A stretch of DNA of 55,804 nucleotides from Xanthobacteraceae bacterium (GTDB lineage: Bacteria; Pseudomonadota; Alphaproteobacteria; Rhizobiales; Xanthobacteraceae). The stretch covers positions 1-55,804 of the forward strand of contig JAFAXD010000468.1 in the NCBI GenBank assembly GCA_019241285.1. The letters run 5' to 3'. The notes beneath the pieces are model-generated. The model was not told where the DNA came from, did no database searches, and worked only from the letters and a program-made list of their open reading frames with translations. How positions within the stretch are numbered: the stretch's first letter is position 1; every line of letters begins with the position of its first letter. Positions 13,556-32,108 of the stretch are shown one piece after another. The position numbers and the translations under genes are program-made.

Positions 13556-13672
13556 CTTAGATGACGCCAATGCCATAGATGACCTCGCTACGCCATACAT
13601 GACACCCACGTCGGCGAGGTCTGATACTTAGATGACACCCTGCACATAGATGACACTCTACACATAGATGAC
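13556..13672. repeat. cluster of six degenerate CATAGATGAC-type repeats (starts 13556, 13574, 13594, 13627, 13645, 13663)
   Basis: Read directly: cttagatgac, catagatgac, catacatgac, cttagatgac, catagatgac, catagatgac; start-to-start spacing mostly 18 bp. Confidence 0.85.
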
Positions 13673-13807
13673 AGCGATGCGCACGGATGGTGCTGAATGC
13701 GATCCGCAAGTCGACAGGCGTGCGCTTTCTCTGATTCACAAAGTCAAACAGCCCGGCGCAGCCGTGCGGCTCGCCGAGACGGATTCATCAGTTTTGCAAA
13801 TTGATTG

Positions 13808-14068
13808 TCAAATATTTCGTGTCGGCGTGGGCGCTATCTCGAGTGGCGAGCGTATGATCCGTGGATCGATTCCGCACAGACCGGCCGATCGCAATCGAAT
13901 AGGATTTCGCTCACCCGCGCGAGCAGCCTTGAGAATACGAAAGGCGATCTGAACCTTCAGCGCAGATGTTCTCGCCTCAACGGGAATGCTTTGTTCGGCT
14001 TCGACCAAGACTCGTTTCAACAGCGCAAGCGTGTCTGGATCGAAATTCGCTTCGATTTGCTCTGCCAT
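13808..14068 (-). CDS. hypothetical protein
   Basis: 86-aa ORF MAEQIEANFDPDTLALLKRVLVEAEQSIPVEARTSALKVQIAFRILKAARAGE... Confidence 0.5.
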   Translation of the reverse strand: MAEQIEANFDPDTLALLKRVLVEAEQSIPVEARTSALKVQIAFRILKAARAGERNPIRLRSAGLCGIDPRIIRSPLEIAPTPTRNI

Positions 14069-14161
14069 TTTGTCTCGTTCGGTTGGTTAGATTAAAAGAC
14101 GTTAGGAGCTTTTGGCTGCGTAGAGATTGCGGGTAGGTGAAATTTTATTAACGTCCTCGGG

Positions 14162-14227
14162 CGAGCCTTGGCTTCTCGTGCGTGAGATTGCTCGAATTGT
14201 GTGCGCTTTCGAACCAATGCCGAAGCT
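14162..14227 (+). repeat. left copy of a 66-bp imperfect direct repeat (partner 24778-24843)
   Basis: cgagccttggcttctcgtgcgtgagattgctcgaattgtgtgcgctttcgaaccaatgccgaagct; 61/66 identical to partner by eye, including a 28-bp exact core. Confidence 0.9.
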
Positions 14228-14252
14228 GGACCGAAGAATTGCGACCCGCTGT

Positions 14253-14299
14253 CATAGATGACGCTGCTCGCATAGATGACGTGCCTTCGCATAGGTGAC
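14253..14299. repeat. second cluster of the CATAGATGAC-type repeat (three copies: 14253, 14271, 14290)
   Basis: catagatgac, catagatgac, cataggtgac at 18-19 bp spacing, same orientation as the 13556-13672 cluster. Confidence 0.85.
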
Positions 14300-14600
14300 G
14301 TCGTGCATTTCGTGTCTCGACCAGCGGCTCGAGAAGGGGATTGCAGGAACCCCGATGCGGAGCCGCGGCGACGTTTTTCGTAAGGCAGCATTTTTGCGAA
14401 AGATCATTTGGCCGTTGCCCGTGGCGATAGCGCGGCAGAACTGCGGCTCATCGGAAAATTACTCATCAGTTTTGCGTGAATCTTGTCAAACGCTTTCTCA
14501 CCAAGAATTGGATTGCCTCCGCTCGAGACGCTGTCACGCGTGGGTCGAGCGGACGTTTATCTATGTGATGCGGAAACAGCTTGCTTTCTTGGTGGAAAAG

Positions 14601-14608
14601 TCTATTAA
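14601..14608 (+). promoter_or_regulatory. candidate shared motif TCTATTAA upstream of acyl-CoA dehydrogenase-like gene
   Basis: ggaaaagTCTATTAAAAAAGTATACGATTG, 30 nt upstream of ATG 14631; similar sites at 15829, 28184 and 33790. Confidence 0.35.
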
Positions 14609-14630
14609 AAAAGTATACGATTGCTCGATC

Positions 14631-15806
14631 ATGACCGTCATCACCACCAAAATCGACCGACAAGACCCGTTCGTCGGGGTCGTGGACGCCTTCGCGGCCG
14701 GCGCAGAAAAGCATGACCGGCTCGGGACCGTGGCGCACGAGAGCCTTCACGTCGCGGCGCGCGCCGGTTTGCAAACTCTCACAGTGCCGCGCGCGATGGG
14801 CGGCTTGGGGGCGGGGCTCGCGGAAACGGCCAGCGTGGCGCGGCGCCTGGGCGCGGCCGATCCCGCAGCAACCTTGATCCTCGCCATGACCTGGATCCAG
14901 CATGCACACGTCGCAATGGAACGGCGGTGGCCTGAGCGGGTCTATCGCGAGGTCGTGCGAGACGCGTTCGCCGGACGCGGGTTGCTCAATGCGTTGCGCG
15001 TTGAACCTGAACTTGGGACGGTCATGCGCGGCGGCATTCCAGCCTCGACTGCACGCGCTACGCCGGAAGGATGGCGTCTGAGCGGACGCAAGATCTACTC
15101 AACCGGCGCCTCGGTTCTCAACTGGTACAATGTGTTCGCGCGCACGGACAGCGACAACCCGCAAGTCGGCTATTTCCTGGTACGCGCCGGAACGCCGGGC
15201 ACACGTATCGAGGCGGCGTGGGACCATCTGGGAATGCGCGCCAGCGACAGCCATGATGTCGTGTTCGAAGACGCGCTGGTGCCGAAAGATTATGCAGTCG
15301 ATGTCCGGCCGGCGAGCGCATGGAGACAAGTGCCCCCGCTGCACGCCGCCTGGTTTTCGCTCACCGTATCGGCGATCTATCTGGGCATTGCCGATGCGGC
15401 GCGGGACTGGCTGATCGGATTTCTGCGTTCGCGGACGCCGACCAATCTCGGCCGGCCATTGGCAACGCTCGAGCGTATGCAAGTCGCGATTGGCGAGATT
15501 GAGGCGCTGCGCACCACCGCCGCAACAATGTTGGCCTCCACCGCGCGCAAGGCGGATACCACTCCCGCCGAGCTGAGCCCCGAAGAGCCGGGGTTGGTCA
15601 AGCACCTCGTCTCCGAGAGCGCGATTGAAATCGTGCAGAAGGCGAGTGCATTGATCGGCAATCCGGCGCTGACGCGCGCGCATCCGCTCGAACGGCATTT
15701 GCGGGATGTTCTGTGCGCCCGAGTCCACTCACCACAGAGCGACAGCGTCTTGAAAGCAGCAGGAATCGCGGCGCTAGGACCATTTGTAGAATCCGTTGCT
15801 CGGTAA
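14631..15806 (+). CDS. acyl-CoA dehydrogenase family protein (DszC/SfnB-like flavin monooxygenase fold)
   Basis: Start MTVITTKIDRQDPF within ORF 14295-15806; LTVPRAMGGLGAGLAETASVARRLGAADPAATLILAM, GWRLSGRKIYSTGASVLNWYNVFART. Confidence 0.85.
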   Translation: MTVITTKIDRQDPFVGVVDAFAAGAEKHDRLGTVAHESLHVAARAGLQTLTVPRAMGGLGAGLAETASVARRLGAADPAATLILAMTWIQHAHVAMERRWPERVYREVVRDAFAGRGLLNALRVEPELGTVMRGGIPASTARATPEGWRLSGRKIYSTGASVLNWYNVFARTDSDNPQVGYFLVRAGTPGTRIEAAWDHLGMRASDSHDVVFEDALVPKDYAVDVRPASAWRQVPPLHAAWFSLTVSAIYLGIADAARDWLIGFLRSRTPTNLGRPLATLERMQVAIGEIEALRTTAATMLASTARKADTTPAELSPEEPGLVKHLVSESAIEIVQKASALIGNPALTRAHPLERHLRDVLCARVHSPQSDSVLKAAGIAALGPFVESVAR

Positions 15807-15828
15807 GACCTCGTTTATGCGATTATAA

Positions 15829-15836
15829 TCTATTGA
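15829..15836 (+). promoter_or_regulatory. candidate shared motif TCTATTGA in AT-rich spacer upstream of the LLM monooxygenase
   Basis: gattataaTCTATTGACTTAATATACTATTGTCGG between 15806 and 15916. Confidence 0.35.
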
Positions 15837-15915
15837 CTTAATATACTATTGTCGGCCAAATCGACAGCGTCACAAACGGTTTACCGGCACCCCAGCGGAG
15901 CTGCAGGCCAGCATC

Positions 15916-17007
15916 ATGTCAGTCGAATTCATTGGCTACGTTCCGTCGCGCCATTCCTCCGAGATCTTTCCTCCGGCGGGCGCCGTCGTCGATCGCGCCT
16001 ATATCGAGGCCAGCGCTCGGGCGCATGAAGCGGCGGGGTTTGATCGCGCCCTCGTGGCATTTCATTCGACGAGCCCGGAAAGTCTGCTGATTGCCGCCTA
16101 TGCGGCTTGGGCTGCACCTGCGCTCGGCGTCATGATCGCGCACCGGCCGGGCTTCACCACGCCAACCTTGGCGGCGCGCCAATTCGCGACGCTTGATCAG
16201 CTGACCGGCGGCCGGACCGCGATCCACATTATCAGCGGCGGCAACGATGCCGAGCAGCGCCAGGATGGTGATTATCTCAGCCATGATGAGCGTTACGCGC
16301 GCACCGACGAATACCTCGATGTTCTGCGCGCGATCTGGACCAGTCGCGAACCCATTGACCACGTCGGCCACTACTACCGGTTCGATCGCGCCTTCGCCGA
16401 GGTCAAGTCGGTCCAGCAACCACATATCCCGGTGTTCTTTGGCGGCTCGTCGGACGCCGCAATTGCGGTCGCAGGCAAGCATGCCGACGTCTATGCGCTA
16501 TGGGGCGAGCCGCTGGCCGAAGTGCGCGATACCATCGCGCGGGTGCGCGCGGCGGCAGCGGCTTACGGACGATATCCCCGGTTCAGCGTTTCATTCCGCC
16601 CGATCCTTGGCGAAACCGAAGCGAAGGCCTGGGTTCGCGCGGAGGCGATTCTTGCGCGCGTGCGCGAGGTCCGTGCAAGTGCCGGGCTCGGTGCACCGGC
16701 CAAACCTGCCAATATCGGTTCACAGCGGTTGCTGGCGGCGGCTGCCCAAGGACGCCGCCTCGACAAACGCCTGTGGACTGCGGTTGCGGCAGAGACCGGC
16801 GCGCGGGGCAACACGACAGCGCTGGTCGGTACGCCGGACCAAGTCGCCGACGCGTTGCTCGATTACTACGAACTCGGCGTCAGCACATTCCTCATTCGCG
16901 GCTTTGATCCACTTGCCGACGCCGCCGAATACGGCCGCGACTTAATCCCTCTCACACGCAAGCGCGTAGCGGAGCGCATCCGCAGGTCCGCGCACGCCGC
17001 CGAGTAA
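15916..17007 (+). CDS. LLM class flavin-dependent oxidoreductase, SsuD-like (alkanesulfonate monooxygenase family)
   Basis: ALGVMIAHRPGFTTPTLAARQFATLDQLTGGRTAIHIISGGNDAEQRQDGDYLSHDERYARTDEYLDVLRAIW; HIPVFFGGSSDAAI. Confidence 0.9.
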   Translation: MSVEFIGYVPSRHSSEIFPPAGAVVDRAYIEASARAHEAAGFDRALVAFHSTSPESLLIAAYAAWAAPALGVMIAHRPGFTTPTLAARQFATLDQLTGGRTAIHIISGGNDAEQRQDGDYLSHDERYARTDEYLDVLRAIWTSREPIDHVGHYYRFDRAFAEVKSVQQPHIPVFFGGSSDAAIAVAGKHADVYALWGEPLAEVRDTIARVRAAAAAYGRYPRFSVSFRPILGETEAKAWVRAEAILARVREVRASAGLGAPAKPANIGSQRLLAAAAQGRRLDKRLWTAVAAETGARGNTTALVGTPDQVADALLDYYELGVSTFLIRGFDPLADAAEYGRDLIPLTRKRVAERIRRSAHAAE

Positions 17008-17034
17008 TTGCATCTGACGCAAGGAGTTCATTCA

Positions 17035-18156
17035 ATGGCCAGCGACTCCAATCTATTGCCTGCCGACGACACGCCCCATTCGCGCCCCTCGCGTCGGGCA
17101 CTGCTCGCGGGCGCCGGTGCGCTTAGTTTCGCGGCCCCATTCGGGTTGTTTCACGCGGCGAATGCGTTGACGGGCCTCGGGAGCAGGAGCTCTAGCTTTC
17201 CTGGGGGCGGGGACGACTTCCCGATCTGCCGGGTCGCCGCGACGAGCGCCGTCAATGAAGGTCCTGCGCGCTCCCTCAAGCTTGCCTGGAACGCGACCGC
17301 TATCTGCACGTCCGCCGCGCCAGTCGCCAAAGAGCGCGGCATCTTTGCCCGGCATGGGCTCGACGTCGAGTTCGTCAATTTCGGCGGCTCCACGGAGCAA
17401 CTGCTCGAGGCCATTGCCACCGGCAAGGCGGACGCCGGCATCGGCATGGCGTTGCGCTGGCTCAAGCCGCTCGAGCAAGGTTTTGATGTGCGCATTACCG
17501 CCGGCGTTCACGGTGGCTGCATGCGAGTGCTGGGGTCCAAGGCGGCAGGAATCAACAGCCTCGAGGATTTGAAGGGCAAGACCATCGCGATCAGCGATCA
17601 GGCGAGCCCGACCAAGAATTTCTTCTCCATCCTGTTGCTCAAGCGCGGCATTGATCCGGAGAGCATCCAATGGCGGCAATATCCGTCGAACCTATTGGCA
17701 CTCGCAGTCGACAAGGGCGAAGCGCAAGCGCTGGCTGACGCCGATCCGCTCACGTTCCTGTGGCTCAAGGAAGGCAAGCTCAACGAACTCGCCACCAACC
17801 TGTCGGGTGAATATGCGAGCCGGACCTGCTGCGTCCTGGCGATCCGCGGCAGCCTGATCCGGGATGACAAGCAGGTTGCCGCTGCGCTCACCCATGCGGT
17901 TCTGGAGGCCGGCGATCACGTGGCGCACCAGCCGGAAGATGCCGCCGCGGTGTTCTCGGCTTACGGCGGCAAGGGATCGGTCGAGGACCTCGCCGCCATG
18001 CTCAGGAGCCACACGCACCATGACCATCCGGTCGGCTCCGACCTCAAACAACAAATCGCGCTCTATGCCGATGAGCTCAAGTTGGTGAACGTGTTCAAAC
18101 CCAGCACCAATACGGCGAAATTCGCTGAGCGCGTCTACGCCGACGTGCTGAGCTGA
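17035..18156 (+). CDS. ABC transporter substrate-binding protein (NMT1/SsuA-like), putative Tat signal
   Basis: SRRALLAGAGALSFAAP leader; ERGIFARHGLDVEFVNFGGSTEQLLEAIATGKADAGIGMALRWLKPLEQGFDVRITAGVHGGC. Confidence 0.85.
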   Translation: MASDSNLLPADDTPHSRPSRRALLAGAGALSFAAPFGLFHAANALTGLGSRSSSFPGGGDDFPICRVAATSAVNEGPARSLKLAWNATAICTSAAPVAKERGIFARHGLDVEFVNFGGSTEQLLEAIATGKADAGIGMALRWLKPLEQGFDVRITAGVHGGCMRVLGSKAAGINSLEDLKGKTIAISDQASPTKNFFSILLLKRGIDPESIQWRQYPSNLLALAVDKGEAQALADADPLTFLWLKEGKLNELATNLSGEYASRTCCVLAIRGSLIRDDKQVAAALTHAVLEAGDHVAHQPEDAAAVFSAYGGKGSVEDLAAMLRSHTHHDHPVGSDLKQQIALYADELKLVNVFKPSTNTAKFAERVYADVLS

Positions 18157-18174
18157 GCGGCGCGCGGACAAACG

Positions 18175-19191
18175 ATGAGTACCGTTGCGAATGAGGTCCC
18201 GGTCACGTCACGCGCCAAGATCGGGGCGTCGCAAGGGTTCGCCCGGCCTTCGATCACGATCGTGGTGGCGAGCGCCGCTTGGCTCGCGGTGGCTGCGGTC
18301 GTGCGGTTCTGGCCGGATACGCCGGACAGCGATTGGGCTCACACCGGCGATCTGGCCATCATCCTCGCCGCATTCGGCGGGGCACTGGCGGTCGCCGGAT
18401 TGCTGAGCTCCGCGTTCGTCCCCGTCATGCAACGGGTACGCCGGATTGCTCCATGGCTGATCGTGCTCGCTGTGTTCATCGGTGTTTGGGAAATCGTGAC
18501 GGCGAAGCTCGCCTTGCTGCCGCTGCCGTTCTTTCCGCCGCCGCAGGCGGTCCTTGAGGTGTTCATCGACGATTGGTCCAAGCTCGGGGCTAGCACGCTC
18601 GCATCATTGCGCTTGCTGGCCGGCGGTTATCTGATCGGTGCCGCCATCGGCTTTACGGCCGGGGTCGTTATTGGTTGGTCGCCCGCCTTCGGCTACTGGA
18701 TCCACCCGATTTTACGTTTCATCGGGCCGCTGCCAGCGACCGCATGGCTCCCGCTCGCGTTCTTCATCTTTCCCTCGAGTCTCAGCGCCAGCACGTTCCT
18801 GATCGCGCTCGCTACCGGTTTTCCGGTCACGGTGCTCACCTGGTCAGGCGTCGCGAGCGTGTCCACGGCCTACTACGATGTCGCGCGGACGCTGGGCGCC
18901 AGCAAAGCGTTTCTGGTGTTCAAGGTCGCCATCCCGGCGGCGATGCCGCATGTGTTTGTGGGATTGTTCATGGGGCTCGGCAATTCCTTCGCCGTGCTGG
19001 TCGTGGCCGAGATGCTGGGCGTCAAGTCGGGTCTAGGCTGGTACCTGCAATGGGCGCAGGGCTGGGCCGCCTACGCCAACATGTACGCAGCGCTGCTGGT
19101 GATGGCGCTCGCCTGCTCCGGATTGATCACGTTGCTGTTCCGGTTCCGCGATCACCTCCTCGCCTGGCAGAGGGGATTGGTTCGATGGTAG
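18175..19191 (+). CDS. ABC transporter permease (SsuC/TauC type) with extended hydrophobic N-terminus
   Basis: GGYLIGAAIGFTAGVVIGWSPAFGYWIHPILRFIGPLPATAWLPLAFFIFP; DVARTLGASKAFLVFKVAIPAAMPHVFVGLFMG. Confidence 0.88.
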   Translation: MSTVANEVPVTSRAKIGASQGFARPSITIVVASAAWLAVAAVVRFWPDTPDSDWAHTGDLAIILAAFGGALAVAGLLSSAFVPVMQRVRRIAPWLIVLAVFIGVWEIVTAKLALLPLPFFPPPQAVLEVFIDDWSKLGASTLASLRLLAGGYLIGAAIGFTAGVVIGWSPAFGYWIHPILRFIGPLPATAWLPLAFFIFPSSLSASTFLIALATGFPVTVLTWSGVASVSTAYYDVARTLGASKAFLVFKVAIPAAMPHVFVGLFMGLGNSFAVLVVAEMLGVKSGLGWYLQWAQGWAAYANMYAALLVMALACSGLITLLFRFRDHLLAWQRGLVRW

Positions 19192-19985
19192 CGGCAGCGA
19201 TCCGGGTCGAAGCGACGACAGCACCAACCGCGGGCAGTGCGTTGCATGTCCAGGATGTCAGCCATCAATTCAAATTGCACGGAGAGCCGCTTGCGGTGCT
19301 CGAGCGCGTCAATCTCCAGGTTGCTGCCGGCGAGTTTGTTGCCGTGCTCGGTCCCAGCGGCTGCGGCAAATCAACGTTATTGAGACTCGTGGCCGGGCTC
19401 GAGCCTCCGTCCGCAGGGCGGCTGTTCATCGATGGCGAGCTGATTGCGGGTCCGCATCCCTCGCGAGTCGTCGTGTTCCAGGATCCGACGCTCTATCCCT
19501 GGCGGACCGTCTGGCGCAACGTGGCGCTGGGGCCCGAGGCACAGGGCAACCTGCAGGCCAAACGCGGCCGTGTCGCCGAGGCGCTGAAGCTCGTCGGGCT
19601 GACTGGGTTTGAGAACGCCTATCCGCACCAGCTCTCGGGTGGCATGGCGCAGCGCGTCGCCTTGGCGCGCGCGCTGGTGAATGACCCACAGCTGCTCATA
19701 CTCGATGAGCCGTTGGGAAAGCTCGATTCGCTTACACGCATCGCCATGCAAAGCGAGCTCGTGTCGCTCTGGCAGAACGCGGGATTTACGGTGCTGCTGG
19801 TCACCCACGATGTGGAAGAGGCGCTGTTCCTGGCACAGCGCGTGATCGTGTTCAGCGATCGGCCGGCGCGCCTCAAGACAGAGATTGTCAACGCCCTCCC
19901 ATACCCGCGCCACCGGGGCGATCCCCGCCTCGCAGAGCTGCGCCACGCGGTGTTGGCGCAACTCGGCTTGGACGCGACCTGGTAG
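19185..19985 (+). CDS. ABC transporter ATP-binding protein (SsuB/TauB type)
   Basis: Walker A GPSGCGKSTLL, signature LSGGMAQRVALARAL, Walker B LLILDEPL; start MVAAAIRVEATT inside ORF 18675-19985. Confidence 0.93.
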   Translation: MVAAAIRVEATTAPTAGSALHVQDVSHQFKLHGEPLAVLERVNLQVAAGEFVAVLGPSGCGKSTLLRLVAGLEPPSAGRLFIDGELIAGPHPSRVVVFQDPTLYPWRTVWRNVALGPEAQGNLQAKRGRVAEALKLVGLTGFENAYPHQLSGGMAQRVALARALVNDPQLLILDEPLGKLDSLTRIAMQSELVSLWQNAGFTVLLVTHDVEEALFLAQRVIVFSDRPARLKTEIVNALPYPRHRGDPRLAELRHAVLAQLGLDATW

Positions 19986-20009
19986 GCAAGCGCGAAGCGC
20001 ATCGATGAT

Positions 20010-21614
20010 ATGACGGGTCGTTCAACATACTCCGAGGCCGCGCTGAGCGCCGATGTGCTTGTCATCGGTGGCGGGCTTGCGGGTACCTGGGCCGCGGTCG
20101 CGGCGGCGCGCGAAGGCGCCCAGGTCGTGCTCACGGAAAAAGGCTATTGCGGCACCAGCGGGGTCACCGCCACCGCCGGTCCTGGTCATTGGTGGGTCCC
20201 ACCGGATCCGCAGTTGCGGGCAGAGGCGATCCGCCGCCGTCAGCTCACCAGCTTCGGGCTTGCTGATTCCCACTGGATGGCGCGCATTCTCGACACTACC
20301 TGGCGGACGCTGCCGACGATTGCCAATTACTACGACTTCTCGGTCGACGACAGCGGCGCCATTCACTATCGCAGCCTGCGCGGTCCCGAATACATGCGGG
20401 CGATGCGACGGCTCACCGAGGACGCCGGGGTGCGCATCCTCGACCAGAGTCCCGCGCTTGAATTGTTGCTGCACAATGACGGCTCGGTCGCGGGTGCGCG
20501 TGGGTTGCGGCGACAGGAGCAACAAGAATGGACGGTGCGCGCCGGAGCCGTCGTGCTGGCCACCGGCGGCTGCGCGTTCATGTCAAAGTTGCTTGGCAGC
20601 CAAACCAATACCGGTGACGGGCAATTGATGGCGGCCGAAGCCGGCGCCGAACTCTCCGGGATGGAGTTTTCCACCTACCACACCGTGGCACCCGTTTTCT
20701 CCAACATGACGCGATCGATGTCCTATGCGTTCGCGACCTATCTTGACGCGGCCGGACGCGAACTCGCGATCCCGCAAGGACCGGACTCGACGCGTGCGCT
20801 GGCGCGCGAGTTGCTGAAAGGGCCGGTGTTCTGTCATCTGGGCCGAATGCCCGATGATATCCGCGCCGTGCTCACACGGATCTCACCGAACTTCATGCTG
20901 CCGTTCGTGCGCCGCCGCATCGATCCGTTCAGCCAGCCGTTTGAGGTGACGTTGCGCGGCGAAGGCACGGTTCGTGGCACCGGCGGACTGCGAGTCATCG
21001 CTGATGATTGCCGCACCACGGTTCCCGGGCTGTTCGCGGCAGGCGATACCGCAACACGCGAGCGGGTTGCCGGCGCGACGAGCGGCGGTGGTGCGCAGAA
21101 CTCGGCCTGGGCGCTGTCCTCCGGACTCTGGGCCGGGCGCGGTGCCGCGCGACTTGCGCGTGAGCGCGGGCAGGGCAGTGAGCGCCCAGTGGGAGCGATC
21201 GGGGGCGCGGGCCTGCGGCCGCGCCAGCCGGCCGCGGCCGGCCCCTCTGCGGCGGAAGCGATCGCCGCCATGCAGGGCGAGATGCTGCCATTCGACAAGG
21301 CCATTTTCCGCTCCGGTGGCAAGCTCAAGCACTCGCTCTCCGTGCTCGACGATCTTTGGCGCGATCTACGCGCTTCGTTGGGCGGGCGCGGTCTCGCCTT
21401 GGCCAAGGCGCGCGAAACGGCCGCACTGGTCGCCAGCGCACGCTGGTGTACGGCGGCGGCCTATATCCGCAAGGAAAGCCGCGGCATGCATCAGCGAGAG
21501 GACGCGCCGCAGCTCGACGAACGGTTCGCGCGCCGTCTGCTCATCGGGGGCACGGATTGGATCTGGACCAGGTTCGATGAACCGGTCCCGGAGCTGGAGC
21601 GCGCCGCGTCATGA
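20010..21614 (+). CDS. FAD-dependent oxidoreductase, AprA/fumarate-reductase flavoprotein-like (paralogue of 28583-30199)
   Basis: ADVLVIGGGLAGTWAAVAAAREGAQVVLTEKGYCGTSG; GTVRGTGGLRVIADDCRTTVPGLFAAGDTATRERVAGATSGGGAQNSAWALSSG. Confidence 0.88.
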   Translation: MTGRSTYSEAALSADVLVIGGGLAGTWAAVAAAREGAQVVLTEKGYCGTSGVTATAGPGHWWVPPDPQLRAEAIRRRQLTSFGLADSHWMARILDTTWRTLPTIANYYDFSVDDSGAIHYRSLRGPEYMRAMRRLTEDAGVRILDQSPALELLLHNDGSVAGARGLRRQEQQEWTVRAGAVVLATGGCAFMSKLLGSQTNTGDGQLMAAEAGAELSGMEFSTYHTVAPVFSNMTRSMSYAFATYLDAAGRELAIPQGPDSTRALARELLKGPVFCHLGRMPDDIRAVLTRISPNFMLPFVRRRIDPFSQPFEVTLRGEGTVRGTGGLRVIADDCRTTVPGLFAAGDTATRERVAGATSGGGAQNSAWALSSGLWAGRGAARLARERGQGSERPVGAIGGAGLRPRQPAAAGPSAAEAIAAMQGEMLPFDKAIFRSGGKLKHSLSVLDDLWRDLRASLGGRGLALAKARETAALVASARWCTAAAYIRKESRGMHQREDAPQLDERFARRLLIGGTDWIWTRFDEPVPELERAAS

Positions 21615-21967
21615 TTGAGCTTGTCATCGCCGAGCGCTGCGTGCGTTGCGACGCCTGTGTCGACATCTGCCCAACCAACGTGTTTGACGCGGTTCCTGAC
21701 GCGCCACCTCGCATCGCGCGTCAGGAAGATTGCGAGACGTGCTTCATGTGCGAGCTCTATTGCCCAACAGACGCGCTGTTTGTCGGGCCCGACTGCGAGC
21801 ATGCGGAGCCGACAGATGAAGCGAAGATCCTGGCCTCGGGCTGGCTCGGTCAATTCCGGCGCGACTCCGGTTGGGGCGAATGGGCCGGTGATCCGCGCTA
21901 TCGCAACGAACACTGGCGCATGGACGGCGTGTTCCTGCGCGCCCGCGAGATGAACGAACGACGCTGA
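21611..21967 (+). CDS. 4Fe-4S ferredoxin family protein, AprB-like (2x[4Fe-4S])
   Basis: CVRCDACVDICPTNVFDAVPDAPPRIARQEDCETCFMCELYCPTDALFV; ATGA overlap with the flavoprotein gene. Confidence 0.9.
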   Translation: MIELVIAERCVRCDACVDICPTNVFDAVPDAPPRIARQEDCETCFMCELYCPTDALFVGPDCEHAEPTDEAKILASGWLGQFRRDSGWGEWAGDPRYRNEHWRMDGVFLRAREMNERR

Positions 21968-22016
21968 TGAGCGCATGGATCTGTGAACGCACCTTCAGGC
22001 ATGGAGCTTTGGTGAC

Positions 22017-22994
22017 ATGAAGCAATCCGTATCCCGGCGTCGCGCCCTCGCCATCGGCGCGTCGGCCATTGGCCTCGGCTTTCGAAGGGCAATTGCCGAG
22101 CAGGCAGCCGACCTCAAGAACGTCACGCTGCGGGTCGGCGACCAGACCGGGGCGACGCAATCCAAGCTGAAGGCGGCCGGCTTGCTTGATGACGTACCTT
22201 ACAAAATCGAGTGGTCGGTCTATGCCGCGGCCGTGAATTTGCACGAAGCCCTGAAAGCCGGAGCGATCGATACCGGACTTGCCGGCGATGCACCGACCAT
22301 CAGCGCGATCGCCGGCGGCTCGCCGATTCAGGTCGCCGCTGCATGGAGCAACGGCGGCAAGGGTGTGGACCTCATCGTCCCGCACAACAGTTCGGCGCAA
22401 AGCATCGCTGATCTGCGCGGCAAAACCATCTCGCCGACGACGCGCGGCAGCATCGGGCAATATCTGGTCATCGGCGCGCTCAAACAAGGCGGGCTGGCGG
22501 CGGCCGATGTCACGCTCGCATTTCTGGCGCCAACCGATGCCGCTGCCGCCTTTTCGGCCGGCGGTATCGATGCGTGGAGCATCTGGGGCGTCTACCGCGC
22601 CCGCGCGCTCGGCGCCTTGAAGGCGAGGGTCCTGGTTCCGGGTGAGGGCATCATCACCGGTTTGTTTGTACTGCCGGCAAGCCGGGCCGCCTTGGCCGAT
22701 CCCGGGAAAACCCAAGCCATCGCCGACTTCGCCGATCGCATCGAGCGCGGATATCGTTGGTCGCGCGCGAACAAGGACGCACAACTCGCCTGGTACAAGA
22801 GCTTCGCCAAGCAGGACAAGGACACAGCCGAGTTCTTGTATGACGAGGAAGCATCCTGCAGGCGCGTGGCGGCGGATGACGCACTCGCCCGGCAGCTGCA
22901 GACGGTGTTCGCCACCTGGGTCGAGGCCGGTGTTCTCAAGGGCAACCTTGATTTGCGCGAATACGTTTATCGAGAGCTCAAGATCGGGACATGA
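22017..22994 (+). CDS. ABC transporter substrate-binding protein (SsuA-like), putative Tat signal
   Basis: MKQSVSRRRALAIGASAIGLGFRRAIA; LKAGAIDTGLAGDAPTISAIAGGSPIQVAAAWSNGGKGVDLIVPHNSSAQSIADLRGKTIS. Confidence 0.88.
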   Translation: MKQSVSRRRALAIGASAIGLGFRRAIAEQAADLKNVTLRVGDQTGATQSKLKAAGLLDDVPYKIEWSVYAAAVNLHEALKAGAIDTGLAGDAPTISAIAGGSPIQVAAAWSNGGKGVDLIVPHNSSAQSIADLRGKTISPTTRGSIGQYLVIGALKQGGLAAADVTLAFLAPTDAAAAFSAGGIDAWSIWGVYRARALGALKARVLVPGEGIITGLFVLPASRAALADPGKTQAIADFADRIERGYRWSRANKDAQLAWYKSFAKQDKDTAEFLYDEEASCRRVAADDALARQLQTVFATWVEAGVLKGNLDLREYVYRELKIGT

Positions 22995-23869
22995 TCGCGC
23001 AGCTCATACGCGCTGCTGCACCGAAGCCGCGCGGTGCCGTCGTCGCCCTCGCTGCGAACGATGAGATGCAGCTTATTACGATCGCGCCGGCGGCGGCGCG
23101 CGCCCGAGGGGTGCCGCGGCTCGTCCGGCGGGCCAGCGGGCCGCTGTTGCTGTTGTTACTCTGGCACGTTCTGTCAGTGACTGGATTGCTGCCTGACACC
23201 GTCTTGGCGGGACCTGCGACCGTGCTGTCGAGCACCGCCGAACTGTTGGCGAGCGGCGAATTGCAGGCGGCGATCTGGACGTCGCTCTACCGCGCACTGA
23301 CGGGTCTTCTGATCGGCGGCAGCGTTGGGGTGGCGCTCGCGACCATCTCCGGCCTGTTTCGGCTCGGGGAGGATCTGGTCGATGCCGTGATGCAGATGCT
23401 GCGCACGGTGCCGAGCATCGCGCTGATACCCTTGTTGATCATCTGGTTCGGTATCGGCGAGGCGCCAAAAATCGCGCTGATCGCGCTGGCAACGGCATTC
23501 CCGCTCTACATCAATGTCTATGCCGGCATTCGCAACGTCGATGTCACGCTGGTCGAGGCTGGTCGCACGCTCGGTCTCTCGCAGGCGGGTCTGATCCGCC
23601 ATGTGGTCTTGCCAGGCGCCTTGCCGAACGCGCTCGTCGGCCTGCGTTATTCCCTTGCGGTCGCTTGGCTCGCCTTGGTGTTTGGCGAGCAGATCAACGC
23701 GACCGCGGGCATTGGTTATCTCATGAGCAACGCGCGCGAGTTCTTTCAGACTCAGGTCATCGTCGTATGCCTCGTGGTCTATGCGCTGCTCGGCATCACG
23801 GTTGATCTCATCGTTCGCGTGCTGGAAAGGACCTTGCTGTCATGGCGACCAGCCTTCAGCGGGACCTGA
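22991..23869 (+). CDS. ABC transporter permease (SsuC type)
   Basis: LLLLLWHVLSVTGLLPDTVLAGPATVLSSTAELLASGELQAAIWTSLYRALTGLLIGGSVGVALATISGL; EAGRTLGLSQAGLIRHVVLPGALPNALVGLRYSLAVAWLALVFGEQI. Confidence 0.9.
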   Translation: MIAQLIRAAAPKPRGAVVALAANDEMQLITIAPAAARARGVPRLVRRASGPLLLLLLWHVLSVTGLLPDTVLAGPATVLSSTAELLASGELQAAIWTSLYRALTGLLIGGSVGVALATISGLFRLGEDLVDAVMQMLRTVPSIALIPLLIIWFGIGEAPKIALIALATAFPLYINVYAGIRNVDVTLVEAGRTLGLSQAGLIRHVVLPGALPNALVGLRYSLAVAWLALVFGEQINATAGIGYLMSNAREFFQTQVIVVCLVVYALLGITVDLIVRVLERTLLSWRPAFSGT

Positions 23870-24618
23870 TCGATCCTGTTGTGCCGCCCGGGCCAGGGGG
23901 GACGGGCGCGGTGGCGGCCGGGCGTTCCACGGCCGTGCGGGTACGCAATCTCAGGCGCACCTTCGGCGCGCAACGTGTTCTCGCCGGTCTCGACCTCGAT
24001 ATCGCGCCAGGCGAGTTCGTGGTGCTGCTCGGTGCCAGCGGCTGCGGCAAGAGCACATTGTTGCGCATCCTGGCCGATCTCGATCACGACTTTGCGGGCG
24101 AGGTCGTGGTTCCGGCACGCCGCGCGGTCGCATTTCAGGCGCCGCGCTTGCTGCCGTGGAAGTCAGTCTGGCGCAACGTGGTGCTTGGGTTGCCCGGTGC
24201 TCCTGACCGGGCCGTGGCTATGGCGGCGCTGGAGGAAGTGAATCTGGCGCACCGCGCCGATCAGTGGCCGAAGGTTCTCTCTGGTGGCGAGGCGCAGCGC
24301 GCTTCGCTGGCGCGCGCTCTCGTCCGGCAGCCCGATCTGTTGCTGCTCGATGAGCCATTTGCCGCGCTCGATGCGCTCACCCGCATCAAGGCCCAGGATC
24401 TCGTCGCCGAGCTGTGGCAACGCCACGGCTGCGCCGTGCTGCTCGTGACCCACGATGTGGAAGAAGCGGTCCTCCTGGCGGATCGGATCCTGGTGATGCA
24501 CAACGGGCAGATAGCCCATGCCATGCGGGTCGATCTGGTGCGGCCGCGTCAGCGGAGCAGCGTTTCATTTGTCGCCTTGCGCCGGCAGCTGCTGGAGTGG
24601 CTGGGGGTCGTGCATTGA
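23842..24618 (+). CDS. ABC transporter ATP-binding protein (SsuB type)
   Basis: Walker A GASGCGKSTLL; LSGGEAQRASLARALVRQPDLLLLDEPFAALDALTRIKAQDLV. Confidence 0.93.
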   Translation: MATSLQRDLIDPVVPPGPGGTGAVAAGRSTAVRVRNLRRTFGAQRVLAGLDLDIAPGEFVVLLGASGCGKSTLLRILADLDHDFAGEVVVPARRAVAFQAPRLLPWKSVWRNVVLGLPGAPDRAVAMAALEEVNLAHRADQWPKVLSGGEAQRASLARALVRQPDLLLLDEPFAALDALTRIKAQDLVAELWQRHGCAVLLVTHDVEEAVLLADRILVMHNGQIAHAMRVDLVRPRQRSSVSFVALRRQLLEWLGVVH

Positions 24619-24630
24619 TGGCGCGTCGAT

Positions 24631-24846
24631 TGGAATGGCGAGCTACTTCGATGCCGCGCTGGAGGGCGTCACACTGGCTGTGTTTGAGCACGCCAGCAGC
24701 CAATAGAGCGTTGACCTTTTGTTCCTGGCGGGCGCGGAACTCGGCGTCGATCCCCTGCCGTTCCTTAGCGCTGTGGCCGAGCCTTGGCCTCTTGTGCGTG
24801 AGATTGCTCGAATTGTGTGCGATTTCGAACCAACGCCGAACCTAAG
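24631..24846 (+). pseudogene. possible gene relic of unknown family overlapping the right direct-repeat copy
   Basis: Coding-like frame interrupted by TAG: MASYFDAALEGVTLAVFEHASSQ*SVDLLFLAGAELGVDPLPFLSAVAEPWPLVREIARIVCDFEPTPNLR. Confidence 0.3.
24778..24843 (+). repeat. right copy of the 66-bp imperfect direct repeat (partner 14162-14227)
   Basis: cgagccttggcctcttgtgcgtgagattgctcgaattgtgtgcgatttcgaaccaacgccgaacct; same orientation as left copy. Confidence 0.9.
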
Positions 24847-24913: not shown

Positions 24914-25414
24914 ATGCGCAAAGTCCTGTTGCCGCAAATAGCGATCGTCGCGGTCGTGGTACTGTCTTGCTTGGAGATGGCTTACAGCGCTCCCGTATCG
25001 TTCAAAGTGCCGCTGTCCGGAGGCCAGGAAGTGCCGCCTGTGTTTCCGGCGGGCGCTGCCACGGCTGATCTGACATATGACCCAGTGACGCGCGTCGTAA
25101 CCTGGACGCTCTCCTACACGGACCTCTCCGGCCCGATCACCGTTGCTGAGTTCCACGGGCCGGCGCAGCCGAGCAAGACTGGTCCTCCTACAATCGCGCT
25201 GGTCAAACAAGGAGGCTCTGTTGGAAGCCCGAACACCGGGCAGGCTACGCTCACCCCGGATCAAGCCCGGCAGTTTGCGGATGGTGAATGGTACATCAAT
25301 ATCGACACTCAGAATCACCCTGAAGGGGAGGTTCGCGGTCAGGTCATAACGCCGCTCGCGTCGCATGCCGAAGCCGCTCATCCATCACATCATGTGCGAA
25401 GGGGCAGGCGCTGA
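24914..25414 (+). CDS. CHRD domain-containing secreted protein
   Basis: MRKVLLPQIAIVAVVVLSCLEMAYSAPVSFKVPLSGGQEVPPVFPAGAATADLTYDPVTRVVTWTLSYTDLSGPITVAEFHGPA...DGEWYINIDTQNHPEGEVRGQV. Confidence 0.88.
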   Translation: MRKVLLPQIAIVAVVVLSCLEMAYSAPVSFKVPLSGGQEVPPVFPAGAATADLTYDPVTRVVTWTLSYTDLSGPITVAEFHGPAQPSKTGPPTIALVKQGGSVGSPNTGQATLTPDQARQFADGEWYINIDTQNHPEGEVRGQVITPLASHAEAAHPSHHVRRGRR

Positions 25415-25643: not shown

Positions 25644-26495
25644 TTGGAGGTCATCATGAATGTTCACACCGACCCACGCGTGCTGGGCGCTGTCGAAGCG
25701 GAGTTGAATTATTTGTTGCCAACGGCTGAACGACCGCGGTCCTACACATTCGAGCCGCCACCGGGCGAACCATGGAGCACCGCTCTGCCGGAACCGCACA
25801 CCGTCAGCATCCGCAACGCGCGTCCCATTTTGGATTCCGTCTATTTGGACAGCGAAGGATTCGAGCTGCTGGAGCAGCAGAGTGCGGTGAAGAATTTCTA
25901 TGACGACGATGAGGTGCGTGCAGTTTATTATCCGGAAGCCGAGCAGGCGCTCAAGCAAGCGACTGGCGCTGATCGGGTCTTCATTTTCGACCATACGGTC
26001 CGTCGCCGTGTCCCCGGCGCTGAGGACCGGCGCACGGGTCCGCGTCAACCCGCAACCCGCGTCCACGTCGATCACACCGCCAAGTCGGGGCCGCAACGCG
26101 TGCGCGATTGGTTGCCTGACGAGGCCGAACAGTTGCTGCGGGGGCGGGTGCAGATCATCAACTTGTGGCGTCCGATTCGCGGGCCGCTACGCGACGCGCC
26201 ACTCGCGGTGTGCGATGCGCAGACGGTCAGTCCTGACGATCTGGTCCCTTCCGATCTGATCTATCCGCATCGGGTCGGCGAAACCTATGGAGTGAAGTAC
26301 AACCCGGCGCACCGGTGGTTCTACATTCCGGAGATGCGCACCGACGAGGTGCTGCTGCTGAAGTGCTACGACTCGGAGCTCGATGGCCGGGCACGGTTTC
26401 TGCCGCACACTGCATTCGTCGATCCGACCACCCCGCCCGATGCGCCGCCGCGCGAGAGCATCGAGCTGCGCACCCTCGTATTTCACACGAAATAG
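25644..26495 (+). CDS. CmcJ/NvfI-like putative oxidoreductase/hydroxylase (2OG-oxygenase-like)
   Basis: RVHVDHTAKSGPQRVRDWLP; GRVQIINLWRPIRGPLRDAPLAVCDAQTVSPDDLVPSDLIY; WFYIPEMRTDEVLLLKCYDS. Confidence 0.8.
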   Translation: MEVIMNVHTDPRVLGAVEAELNYLLPTAERPRSYTFEPPPGEPWSTALPEPHTVSIRNARPILDSVYLDSEGFELLEQQSAVKNFYDDDEVRAVYYPEAEQALKQATGADRVFIFDHTVRRRVPGAEDRRTGPRQPATRVHVDHTAKSGPQRVRDWLPDEAEQLLRGRVQIINLWRPIRGPLRDAPLAVCDAQTVSPDDLVPSDLIYPHRVGETYGVKYNPAHRWFYIPEMRTDEVLLLKCYDSELDGRARFLPHTAFVDPTTPPDAPPRESIELRTLVFHTK

Positions 26496-28209: not shown

Positions 28210-28256
28210 CTCACCCCTCACGTCAATCCGTTCCGGCGATAATGAACGCGCGTACC

Positions 28257-28586
28257 TCAGTGTGGGGAGGCGATGAGCTTGAATGTCTGGTCGCTGCCGC
28301 GCCGGTTGCGCTTGCCACGGCTCCAGCCGATCGAGGCCCGGTAGCTGCCGAGCAGCCCCTGCTCGGCGACAACCTCTTCACTCACGCTCAACGTTTGCTG
28401 CACATCCGGCGCCACGTAGAGCGCATCGACCGGACAATAGAGCTCGCACATGAAGCAGGTTTGGCAATCGGCCTGGCGCGCGATTTTCGGCGCGGCATCA
28501 GGGACTGCATCGAACACATTGGTCGGGCACACCTGAACGCACAGATCGCAGGCGACGCACCGCTCCAGGCTGACGATCTCGATCAT
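28257..28586 (-). CDS. 4Fe-4S ferredoxin family protein, AprB-like (paralogue of 21611-21967)
   Basis: CVACDLCVQVCPTNVFDAVPDAAPKIARQADCQTCFMCELYCPVDALYV; ATGA overlap with 28583. Confidence 0.9.
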   Translation of the reverse strand: MIEIVSLERCVACDLCVQVCPTNVFDAVPDAAPKIARQADCQTCFMCELYCPVDALYVAPDVQQTLSVSEEVVAEQGLLGSYRASIGWSRGKRNRRGSDQTFKLIASPH

Positions 28587-30199
28587 GCGGCCAATGCCTC
28601 CGGTGGCAATGCTGGTGCGGGCCGTGCCTCGACGTGGATGTCGTCGAGACCGGCGACGGTAAGATAGGCGCGCTGCGCCGGATCCTGCTGCAGATGGTCG
28701 TAGCGCTTATGCATGCCGCGGGATTCAGTGCGCGCGAGCGCGCTGCGATACATCCAACGCGCCGTCGCGAGCATTGCGGCGGCTTCGCGCGCCTTGACGA
28801 TATGCTCGCGCGAGGATGCGCGCTTCTGACGGGCGCTTTCCCAGAGGGCGTCGAGGCGGCCAACCGCATCGCTCAGCACCGCTCCGGTTCGGAAATAGTT
28901 GCGCTCGAACGGGAACACCTCAGCTTGTACGTGACGCACCAAGCTGGCGGGATCGAACTCGCCATGACCTTCCGAGTTGAAGGCGATCCCGCCAGCCGGC
29001 CGCGCCCGTGCCCCAACCTTGGCTTGGCCCGCGTAGTCCGCCGCGCCCGCACCGGCCCAGAACCCTGACGACATGGCCCAGGCGGCGTTGTGGCTGCCGC
29101 CACCGGTGAAGCCGCCGCAGACCAGCTCGCGTGAAGCCGCATCGCCGGCCGCATAGAGCCCGGCCACGCCAGTTGCGCATGTGTCGTCGACAAGGCGAAG
29201 CCCGCCCGTGCCGCGCACCGTGCCCTCAAGACGCAGGGTCACTGGAAATCGCTGTTTGAACGGATCGATACCCCGCCGATCGAACGGCACGAAGAAGTTC
29301 GGTTGTGCCAAACGCATCACCGCCTGTTGTTCGGGATCGGCTTTGTCGATTTGTGCATAGACCTGCTGTGTGAGCAAAGCCCGCGCGATGGCCGAGCGTC
29401 CGCCTTGTGATCTCGCGCCGGGGACTTCGGTGCCGTCCGGATAGGTGAACGTCGCCCAGTTGTAGAACAGCGTTTTTGTCACCGACGCGAAGGCGGGCGC
29501 GATCGCGTAGGCGTTGGAGAATTCCATGCCCGAGAGATCCGCGCCGGCCTCGGCCGCCATCAAGTAACCGTCGCCGGTCAACACGTCGCAGCCCAGGGCT
29601 TTGCTCTGAAACGCGCAGCCGCCGCTTGCCAGAACAACCGCCTTGGCGCGCACGACCCAGGTGTCATTCTGCTGGCGACGCACGCCCGTGGCTCCGACGA
29701 CGGCTCCGCTCTCGTCGATCAGCAATTCGAGCGCCGGGCAATGGTCGAGGATGGTCACACCGGCGCGACCAACGCGGCGCCGCATCAACCGCATATATTC
29801 AGGGCCCTGCAACGACGTGCGGCGCGATTGCCCGTTATCGTCGGTCGGAAACGGATAGCCCCACTCGGCCAGCAGGTTGACGGACTCGTACGTGCGGTCG
29901 AGTACGCGCTGCATCCACCGCCGGTCTTGCAGATAGCCGCCCATCTTCTCGCGGCTCGCCATGGCGGCTACACGCTTTGCCGGATCCGGCGGGACGTACC
30001 ACACACCGGTCCCTGATGGAGCGGTAGCGCCCGAGGTTCCGCAGTAACCCTTGTCGACAAGAACGACTGTGGCGCCACGCCAGGCCGCGCTGCAGGCCGC
30101 CCAGGTGCCGGCCGGGCCGCCGCCGATCACCAGCACGTCGGCCGTGAGATCAACCGATCCCGGAGCGACATTGGTGCGATCCGATTGTCGTTGTGTCAT
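28583..30199 (-). CDS. FAD-dependent oxidoreductase, AprA-like (paralogue of 20010-21614)
   Basis: ADVLVIGGGPAGTWAACSAAWRGATVVLVDKGYCGTSGATAPSGTGVWYVPPDP; GTVRGTGGLRLVDDTCATGVAGLYAAGDAASRELVCGGFTGGGSHNAAWAMSSG. Confidence 0.9.
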   Translation of the reverse strand: MTQRQSDRTNVAPGSVDLTADVLVIGGGPAGTWAACSAAWRGATVVLVDKGYCGTSGATAPSGTGVWYVPPDPAKRVAAMASREKMGGYLQDRRWMQRVLDRTYESVNLLAEWGYPFPTDDNGQSRRTSLQGPEYMRLMRRRVGRAGVTILDHCPALELLIDESGAVVGATGVRRQQNDTWVVRAKAVVLASGGCAFQSKALGCDVLTGDGYLMAAEAGADLSGMEFSNAYAIAPAFASVTKTLFYNWATFTYPDGTEVPGARSQGGRSAIARALLTQQVYAQIDKADPEQQAVMRLAQPNFFVPFDRRGIDPFKQRFPVTLRLEGTVRGTGGLRLVDDTCATGVAGLYAAGDAASRELVCGGFTGGGSHNAAWAMSSGFWAGAGAADYAGQAKVGARARPAGGIAFNSEGHGEFDPASLVRHVQAEVFPFERNYFRTGAVLSDAVGRLDALWESARQKRASSREHIVKAREAAAMLATARWMYRSALARTESRGMHKRYDHLQQDPAQRAYLTVAGLDDIHVEARPAPALPPEALAA

Positions 30200-30230
30200 G
30201 AGGCTCTTCCTTGCGGATTTGATACAATTG

Positions 30231-31292
30231 TCAGTTGATGGCTGCGCCATCGGCCGTGCGGTGCGGCCAGTAGTGCTCGAGTCCCAGGCTTTTGAGCGCC
30301 GCGTTCAGGTATTTCGGCTCGAACCACTGCTGCAGGTCGATATCACGACGAATGAGCTTCTCGTCCTTCGAGAATTGAGTGGCATCGCGGTACTGCTCGA
30401 TCAGGAAATCATCGATCAGCGGATTGAATGACTCCTTGAGCGACAGGCCCGCGAACTCTTCCTTCAGCGCGGCGTAGGGCGTGCCGGACTTGGTCCAGAT
30501 CTGCAGCGCTTCTTCGCGGTTCTCCTCGTGGCTGAGCCATTCGTCGGCCCGTACCAGCCCGCGGACGACACGCTGGGTCGTTTCCGGATATTTGCTCTGA
30601 AACTGGTCGCTGACGAGAATCCCGCCAAAGCCGACGGCCTTGGGTCCGGCATCGCGCGACGTGTAGAAGATCTTGACGACGCCTTGGTCGCGCAGCGGAA
30701 ACAGTGAACTTGTTCCGATGCTCGCATCGATGCTGCCCGCCGCCAGCGCCGCAAGCTGATCGGCGGTTTTGAGATCCACAATGGTGACGTCCTTGGCGGA
30801 GAGCCCATTCGCCTCCAGCGCTTTCAGGAACGCCCAATGCAGGATCGTGCCCTTCTGAAAGGCGACCTTGTGGCCTTTCAGGTCCTTGATCGAATCGATC
30901 GGCAGGCCGGTCCGCGCCGCTCCGACGATTGTGGTTTGCCCATACGACATTAGGATGCGCGTCGGCAGACCGTTGGCGCGGCCAATGATGTTGGGCAATC
31001 CGCCGTATTGCGCAAAATCGAGCTGCCCGTTGGCGATCGCCTCATTAATGGCTGGTCCTGTTCCGGTCAGGTAGCTCCACTCGAGCTTCACCGGCGTATC
31101 CTTGAACTCGTCGGCGATGAAACCTTTGACATGGGCGATGGCGAGCAGCGCAACGCCGAATGGCTGGCCGTATCCTTGTCCGAATGCACCGAAGCGAATC
31201 GTGTCCGGCAAAGTTTCGGCACGCACTGGCACTGCGGCCAATGTCGCCATGAGGGTGGCGATGGCGAGCGGCTTTGACCAATTCATGCCCAT
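30231..31292 (-). CDS. ABC transporter substrate-binding protein (SsuA/TauA-like)
   Basis: Sec-type leader MNWSKPLAIATLMATLAAVPVRAE; FGAFGQGYGQPFGVALLAIAHVKGFIADEF...INEAIANGQLDFAQYGGLPNIIGRANGLPTRIL. Confidence 0.9.
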   Translation of the reverse strand: MGMNWSKPLAIATLMATLAAVPVRAETLPDTIRFGAFGQGYGQPFGVALLAIAHVKGFIADEFKDTPVKLEWSYLTGTGPAINEAIANGQLDFAQYGGLPNIIGRANGLPTRILMSYGQTTIVGAARTGLPIDSIKDLKGHKVAFQKGTILHWAFLKALEANGLSAKDVTIVDLKTADQLAALAAGSIDASIGTSSLFPLRDQGVVKIFYTSRDAGPKAVGFGGILVSDQFQSKYPETTQRVVRGLVRADEWLSHEENREEALQIWTKSGTPYAALKEEFAGLSLKESFNPLIDDFLIEQYRDATQFSKDEKLIRRDIDLQQWFEPKYLNAALKSLGLEHYWPHRTADGAAIN

Positions 31293-31316
31293 GGGTGTCC
31301 TTTCAGTACAATGTGC

Positions 31317-32108
31317 TCAGCGCGACAGCGCGCGCAGGATGCGCTCTTTGAGGCGAATGAATTCTGCGGCTGCGCGATCCCGCGGACGCGGAAGATCAAC
31401 AGGGAGAACGGCGCTGATGCGGCCCGGGCGGGGTTCCATGACGACGACCCGGTCGCTCAGATAGACAGCTTCCTCGACATCATGGGTGACCATGATCATC
31501 GTCACGCCACCCTGGCGCCAAATCCGCAACAGTTCTTCCTGCAGGTAGGCGCGGGTGAGCGAATCGAGCGCGCCGAGCGGCTCATCCAGCAACAGGATCT
31601 CCGGCTCGCCGACCAACGCGCGCGCGATCGCGGCGCGCTGCGCCATTCCGCCCGAAAGCTGATGCGGGTAGGCGTTTTCGAAACCATCGAGTCCGACGAG
31701 CGCGATATTCTCGGCCACGCGTCGTTGTTGCTCGGGGATTGGCACATTCGCGGCTTCGAGCCCAAGACTGATATTGTCCGCCACCGTCAGCCACGGAAAC
31801 AGCCGGTGATCCTGAAATACGATTCCGCGGTCAGGTCCCGGCCCCTCGATACGACGACCGTCCAGCAGAATGGCGCCGTCGTATGCGGTATCGAGACCAA
31901 CAATCAGACGCAGCAGCGTGGACTTGCCGCAGCCGGAGGCGCCGACGACGCTCACGAATTCTCCCGGCGCTATGTCGAGGGCGATGCCCTTCAGGACCTG
32001 CAAGGCGCGCCCGTCGACCTGATAGGACTTGCTGACGGCGCGGATCGCGAGCGCCCCCTGATCGTCGATGACGCCGTGGCTCAGGCTCATTTTGCTTCGC
32101 CTTGCCAC
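31317..32108 (-). CDS. ABC transporter ATP-binding protein (SsuB/TauB type)
   Basis: GASGCGKSTLLRLIVGLDTAYDGAILLDG; LSGGMAQRAAIARALVGEPEILLLDEPLGALDSLTR; MVTHDVEEAVYLSDRVVVM. Confidence 0.95.
   Translation of the reverse strand: MARRSKMSLSHGVIDDQGALAIRAVSKSYQVDGRALQVLKGIALDIAPGEFVSVVGASGCGKSTLLRLIVGLDTAYDGAILLDGRRIEGPGPDRGIVFQDHRLFPWLTVADNISLGLEAANVPIPEQQRRVAENIALVGLDGFENAYPHQLSGGMAQRAAIARALVGEPEILLLDEPLGALDSLTRAYLQEELLRIWRQGGVTMIMVTHDVEEAVYLSDRVVVMEPRPGRISAVLPVDLPRPRDRAAAEFIRLKERILRALSR

What the first reader, a model, noticed from the sequence alone, without database searches (positions are those of the whole stretch)
14162..24843. 66-bp direct repeat flanks the first sulfur operon (possible insertion or recombination boundaries)
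14162-14227 and 24778-24843 are 61/66 identical, with an exact 28-bp core gtgcgtgagattgctcgaattgtgtgcg, in the same orientation, 10,616 bp apart. They bracket the acyl-CoA-dehydrogenase-like to ABC#2 ATPase operon. Direct repeats around a functional module are expected from an integrated element, from homologous excision/duplication, or from the module inserting into a gene and leaving both sides with a copy.
Basis: seen in the sequence. Interest (0 to 1): 0.75.

Follow-up and report, generated by a model that had tools for sequence, protein, structure and literature searches.

The report
Old duplication scar flanking sulfur-gene cluster
Two imperfect 69-letter copies of one sequence sit at either side of a ten-gene sulfur-compound uptake and oxidation cluster; they are real and unique in this genome, and look like an old scar of DNA rearrangement rather than the ends of a still mobile element.

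Summary
The repeat is real: 69 nt, 63 identical, same orientation, 14159-14227 and 24775-24843. It is not a dispersed repeat: two copies in the host assembly and none in 391 other genomes of the family; its 20-nt core is absent from 85,000 species genomes and from viral contigs. Each copy is intergenic, one before the first cluster gene, one between the last cluster gene and a CHRD-protein gene. New evidence: the inner edge of the right copy is a breakpoint. A 91-bp internal fragment of a sulfonate-type binding-protein gene (antisense, 24681-24771) is cut off 3 bp before the repeat, shown against an intact paralogue in the same genome. The cluster's homologues elsewhere have fluid gene order and none of the host flanks. 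But nothing marks a mobile element: no integrase on the contig, no tRNA, no transposase among the proteins scanned, no empty site, 9% divergence between copies. The "28-bp exact core" is expected from six random differences (P about 0.26). Best reading: a fossil junction duplication from the recombination that placed or rebuilt the cluster. Ordinary in kind, unproven in history.

The parts
14159..14227 (+). Left copy of the 69-nt direct repeat (R1), intergenic, 404 nt upstream of the first cluster gene
24775..24843 (+). Right copy of the 69-nt direct repeat (R2), 63/69 identical, 71-139 nt upstream of the CHRD gene start
24681..24771 (-). 91-bp internal fragment of a sulfonate/taurine-type ABC substrate-binding-protein gene; 79% identical to the intact paralogue on own contig C143 (5560-5650); similarity stops abruptly at both edges, the right one 3 bp before R2
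14631..24618 (+). Ten-gene cluster between the repeats: acyl-CoA-dehydrogenase-like, luciferase-like monooxygenase, binding protein, permease, ATPase, AprA-like FAD protein, ferredoxin, second binding protein, permease, ATPase
13808..14068 (-). Small conserved protein gene (86 aa, MAEQIEAN...), first gene outside R1 on the left, divergent from the cluster
24914..25414 (+). CHRD-domain protein gene, first gene outside R2 on the right, with a clear AGGAGG ribosome-binding site just before the ATG
   Evidence: PF07452, 4e-21
13556..13812 (+). Dispersed intergenic element copy A: six ATAGATGAC-type units then TCATCAGTTTTGC-N7-TTGTCAAA
14253..14490 (+). Dispersed intergenic element copy B: three ATAGATGAC-type units then TCATCAGTTTTGC-N7-TTGTCAAA, just inside R1

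Best explanation
R1 and R2 are the two products of an old duplication of one 69-nt intergenic sequence that happened when the sulfur cluster was inserted or rebuilt at this place by recombination (RecA-dependent or end-joining, not a dedicated recombinase as far as can be seen). Before the event the 86-aa gene and the CHRD gene would have been divergent neighbours about 230 nt apart, with one copy of the sequence between them; the cluster, carrying a broken binding-protein fragment at its right end, now lies between two copies that have since diverged by 9%. Shown: the repeat, its uniqueness in this assembly, the intergenic positions, the broken gene fragment ending at R2, the mosaic and patchy occurrence of the cluster. 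Inferred: that one event made both copies, and the ancestral order of the flanks.
For: Exactly two copies in the host assembly, bracketing the cluster; absent from relatives and from all collections searched. The inner edge of R2 is a novel joint: nucleotide identity to the intact binding-protein gene is 5-9 of 10 in each ten-base step over 24681-24770 and falls to background from 24771 on; the adjoining part of that gene is conserved between two intact homologues. Cluster homologues occur in Andreprevotia, Phyllobacterium, Mesorhizobium, Azospirillum, Frankia, Pseudomonas and others with blocks in different orders and never with the CHRD gene or the genes left of R1 at their edges. The cluster is 64.8% G+C against 59.2% for the 14 kb to its left.
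Against: No empty site was found: in the 297-genome family sample no contig has the CHRD gene and the 86-aa gene listed close together. The breakpoint is shown only for one of four repeat edges. DNA further right is also about 63% G+C, so composition does not single out the cluster. A copy of the genome's dispersed intergenic element lies inside R1 and another outside it, so the left side has a more tangled history than one clean insertion.
Confidence: 0.5

Rival explanations
1. Small ectopic copying: during repair of a break next to the CHRD gene, 69 nt were copied from the left intergenic region (or the reverse) as a templated patch. The cluster between the copies was already there and is incidental.
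For: Explains two copies only, sharp edges, and a patch lying directly against a broken gene fragment at 24771/24775. Needs no mobile element.
Against: Does not explain why the copies bracket the cluster so neatly.
Confidence: 0.25
2. Shared control site: R is an operator or promoter-proximal element used by two co-directional transcription units, the sulfur operon and the CHRD gene.
For: Both copies lie upstream of + strand genes; both keep an imperfect dyad GCTCGAA-N11-TTCGAAC.
Against: Such a dyad appears in 48% of shuffles of R1; no sigma-70-like promoter in either copy; no significant RNA fold; the fetched loci with homologous clusters or CHRD genes have nothing similar; R1 is 404 nt from its gene, R2 71 nt.
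Confidence: 0.13
3. attL/attR of a decayed integrative element or island whose integrase has been lost.
For: Direct repeats of 12-98 bp are what islands in a rhizobium show (PMC11476347), and 69 nt fits.
Against: No tRNA in the window, no integrase-family match on this contig (the only two in the assembly are on C266 and C648), no mobility gene among the 29 window proteins scanned, no match in phages or plasmids.
Confidence: 0.08
4. Chance similarity or assembly artefact of the metagenome bin.
For: The genome is a 680-contig assembly.
Against: E about 1e-22; the copies differ by 9% with an exact stretch of only 28 nt, short for misleading an assembler that uses larger k (inference).
Confidence: 0.03

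Closest known systems
Genomic islands flanked by attL/attR direct repeats (e.g. Sinorhizobium meliloti islands, PMC11476347)
   Same: A metabolic gene block between two direct repeats of a length in the 12-98 bp range reported there.
   Different: No integrase on the contig, no tRNA target, copies 9% diverged, no empty site or phage/plasmid relative found.
Short-direct-repeat scars of recombination or duplication-insertion in bacterial genomes (general knowledge)
   Same: Two unique direct copies at the edges of a probably transferred, reshuffled operon; broken gene fragment at a junction.
   Different: Longer than a typical transposon target duplication (2-14 bp, general knowledge); ancestral state not observed.
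Sulfonate/sulfur-compound uptake and oxidation gene clusters with AprA-like flavoprotein and ferredoxin
   Same: Gene blocks (monooxygenase-binding protein-permease-ATPase; binding protein-permease-ATPase; AprA-like-ferredoxin) match those in Phyllobacterium, Mesorhizobium, Pararhizobium.
   Different: Block order differs: AprA-like and ferredoxin genes precede the second transporter here, follow it there.

Membership tests
Integrase-type genomic island / integrative element | Direct repeats at both ends | tested here: met
   69 nt, 63/69 identical
Integrase-type genomic island / integrative element | Integrase gene within the element | tested here: not met
   No integrase domain among the window proteins scanned; PF00589 search of the assembly hits only contigs C266 and C648
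Integrase-type genomic island / integrative element | Repeat derived from a tRNA gene end | tested here: not met
   No tRNA in window, no Rfam match
Integrase-type genomic island / integrative element | Empty site with a single repeat in relatives | tested here: inconclusive
   No repeat copy in any relative; no congeneric genome held
Integrase-type genomic island / integrative element | Excised circle or deletion junction | not testable with these tools
   Needs reads or PCR
Composite transposon / IS-mediated insertion | IS copies or transposase genes at the ends, short target duplication | tested here: not met
   No transposase among the 29 window proteins scanned (short ORFs were not all scanned); repeat is 69 nt
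Dispersed intergenic repeat (REP/MITE-like) | Many copies in the genome | tested here: not met
   Two copies only
Conserved regulatory site | Conserved upstream of homologous genes in other genomes | tested here: not met
   No similarity in the fetched cluster and CHRD loci nor in 391 family genomes

The most novel reading that the evidence does not exclude
The two R copies, together with the genome-specific ATAGATGAC-array elements beside R1, are the ends of an unrecognised kind of integrase-less mobile or recombination-prone intergenic unit that captured and delivered the sulfur cluster.
Probability: 0.05. Interest if true: 0.6.

Novelty: new member of a known kind. Interest (0 to 1): 0.25.

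Why it matters
If the insertion history is right, the repeat pair delimits the acquisition of a ten-gene sulfur cluster in an alphaproteobacterium and shows its junction with a broken transporter gene. It would be one more example of a metabolic gene block moving without a visible recombinase. By itself it changes no general view.

Tried and rejected
Coding remnant: R2 lies in a long open frame (EPWPLVREIARIVCDFEPTP) but that peptide has no family match and no relative outside this contig, and most differences between copies change the residue in that frame. RNA element or tRNA end: no Rfam match, no tRNA, fold not better than shuffles. Weak 20-37 nt matches in relatives starting at the same repeat position: the ones inspected lie in unrelated contexts, with E-values expected by chance over 100 genomes. 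Promoter or terminator in R: none. Operator dyad: not above chance. Viral, phage and plasmid origin: no matches (one weak 5% match of the left region).

Full report
Observation. Extended to their limits they are 69 nt long (14159-14227 and 24775-24843), 63/69 identical, same orientation, 10,616 bp apart. The match has E about 1e-22 and the flanks outside 69 nt share nothing. The exact 28-nt core needs no special meaning: with six random differences in 69 nt a run that long occurs in 26% of trials.

Distribution. The window is contig C58 of a 680-contig, 6.6-Mb, 92.7% complete assembly. The repeat occurs twice in it and nowhere else. It is absent from 391 other genomes of the same family. An exact 20-nt core is absent from 85,000 species genomes and from viral contigs, and the phage and plasmid collections have no similar sequence. 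So it is neither a dispersed repeat nor a conserved control site, as far as held genomes go. No congeneric genome is held, which limits every comparison.

Position. R1 is intergenic, between a divergent 86-aa gene (13808-14068, minus) and the first cluster gene (ATG at 14631). R2 is intergenic, between the last cluster gene (stop 24618) and a CHRD-domain gene with a clear ribosome-binding site (ATG 24914). Between them lie ten co-directional genes: acyl-CoA-dehydrogenase-like protein, luciferase-like monooxygenase, two binding protein/permease/ATPase sets, an AprA-like flavoprotein and a ferredoxin.

A breakpoint at R2. The 156 nt between the last cluster gene and R2 contain, antisense, a 91-bp internal piece of a sulfonate-type binding-protein gene. 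It was first seen as a match to a Bradyrhizobium gene and then to an intact 380-aa paralogue on contig C143 of the same genome. In ten-base steps identity is 5-9 of 10 from 24681 to 24770 and near background on both sides. R2 begins at 24775. The adjoining part of that gene is conserved between the two intact homologues, so the loss of similarity is a true junction and not plain divergence. This is the best evidence that the repeat sits on a rearrangement joint.

The cluster elsewhere. Fifty-one loci with the AprA-like gene were fetched from named genomes. The same blocks recur in Phyllobacterium, Mesorhizobium and Pararhizobium and, in part, in Azospirillum, Acetobacteraceae, Frankia, Pseudomonas, Andreprevotia and Amantichitinum, with changed order and orientation, and without the CHRD gene or the genes left of R1 at their edges. 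The AprA-like protein of the cluster is closer to copies in distant taxa (up to 67%) than to Bradyrhizobium copies (49-59%), which suggests transfer, though no tree was built. Base composition rises from 59.2% G+C left of R1 to 64.8% in the cluster, but DNA right of 26 kb is also about 63%, so this is weak.

What is missing. No tRNA and no Rfam element is in the window. None of the 29 window proteins scanned with Pfam is an integrase or transposase; the integrase family search finds only C266 and C648 in the assembly. Contigs with a CHRD gene and contigs with the 86-aa gene do not coincide in the 297-genome family sample, so no empty site was seen. Islands in a rhizobium show an integrase and repeats of 12-98 bp at tRNA genes (PMC11476347); here only the repeats are present.

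Mechanism. The best-supported account is a fossil junction: recombination placed or rebuilt the cluster in a divergent intergenic region and left two copies of 69 nt of it, now 9% diverged. The ancestral spacing, 90 + 69 + 70 = 229 nt between the two divergent genes, would be an ordinary one, but that is inference. The main rival is a templated 69-nt patch unrelated to the cluster. A shared operator is less likely: its only support, an imperfect dyad, appears in 48% of shuffles.

By-product. The left intergenic region carries two copies of a repeat family found at about ten places in this genome: arrays of ATAGATGAC units spaced mostly by 9, 18 or 19 nt, followed in most copies, in fixed orientation, by TTTTGC-N7/8-TTGTCAAA some 97-240 nt downstream of the nearest array. 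The exact paired-unit pattern gives 14 matches here and none in 60 relatives or in the reversed control. One copy lies just outside and one just inside R1. What it is was not resolved.

Noticed in passing
13556-13812 and 14253-14490; also own-genome contigs C53, C92, C122, C130, C157, C458, C506, C548, C596: Genome-specific dispersed intergenic repeat: arrays of ATAGATGAC units (mostly 9/18/19-nt spacing) followed in most copies by a TTTTGC-N7/8-TTGTCAAA box, often preceded by a GATTCA...TCAAACAGCCCGACGC stretch. 14 exact paired-unit matches here, none in 60 relatives. Nature unknown.
   Followed up: partly
24681-24771: Internal fragment of an ABC binding-protein gene stranded antisense between the cluster and the repeat, 79% identical to an intact paralogue on contig C143.
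   Followed up: yes
28242-33767: Second, paralogous cluster (ferredoxin, AprA-like, binding protein, ATPase, two permeases) in opposite orientation 3.6 kb from the first; its AprA-like protein is 64-65% identical to Bradyrhizobium copies, the first cluster's only 49-59%.
   Followed up: partly
13808-14068: Small 86-aa protein with a conserved N-terminal core of about 60 residues, matched in 82 of 297 family genomes and without a family name.
   Followed up: no
25644-26495: 283-aa ORF without a Pfam match, next to the CHRD gene; from memory it resembles CmcJ/NvfI-type oxidoreductases, not tested.
   Followed up: no
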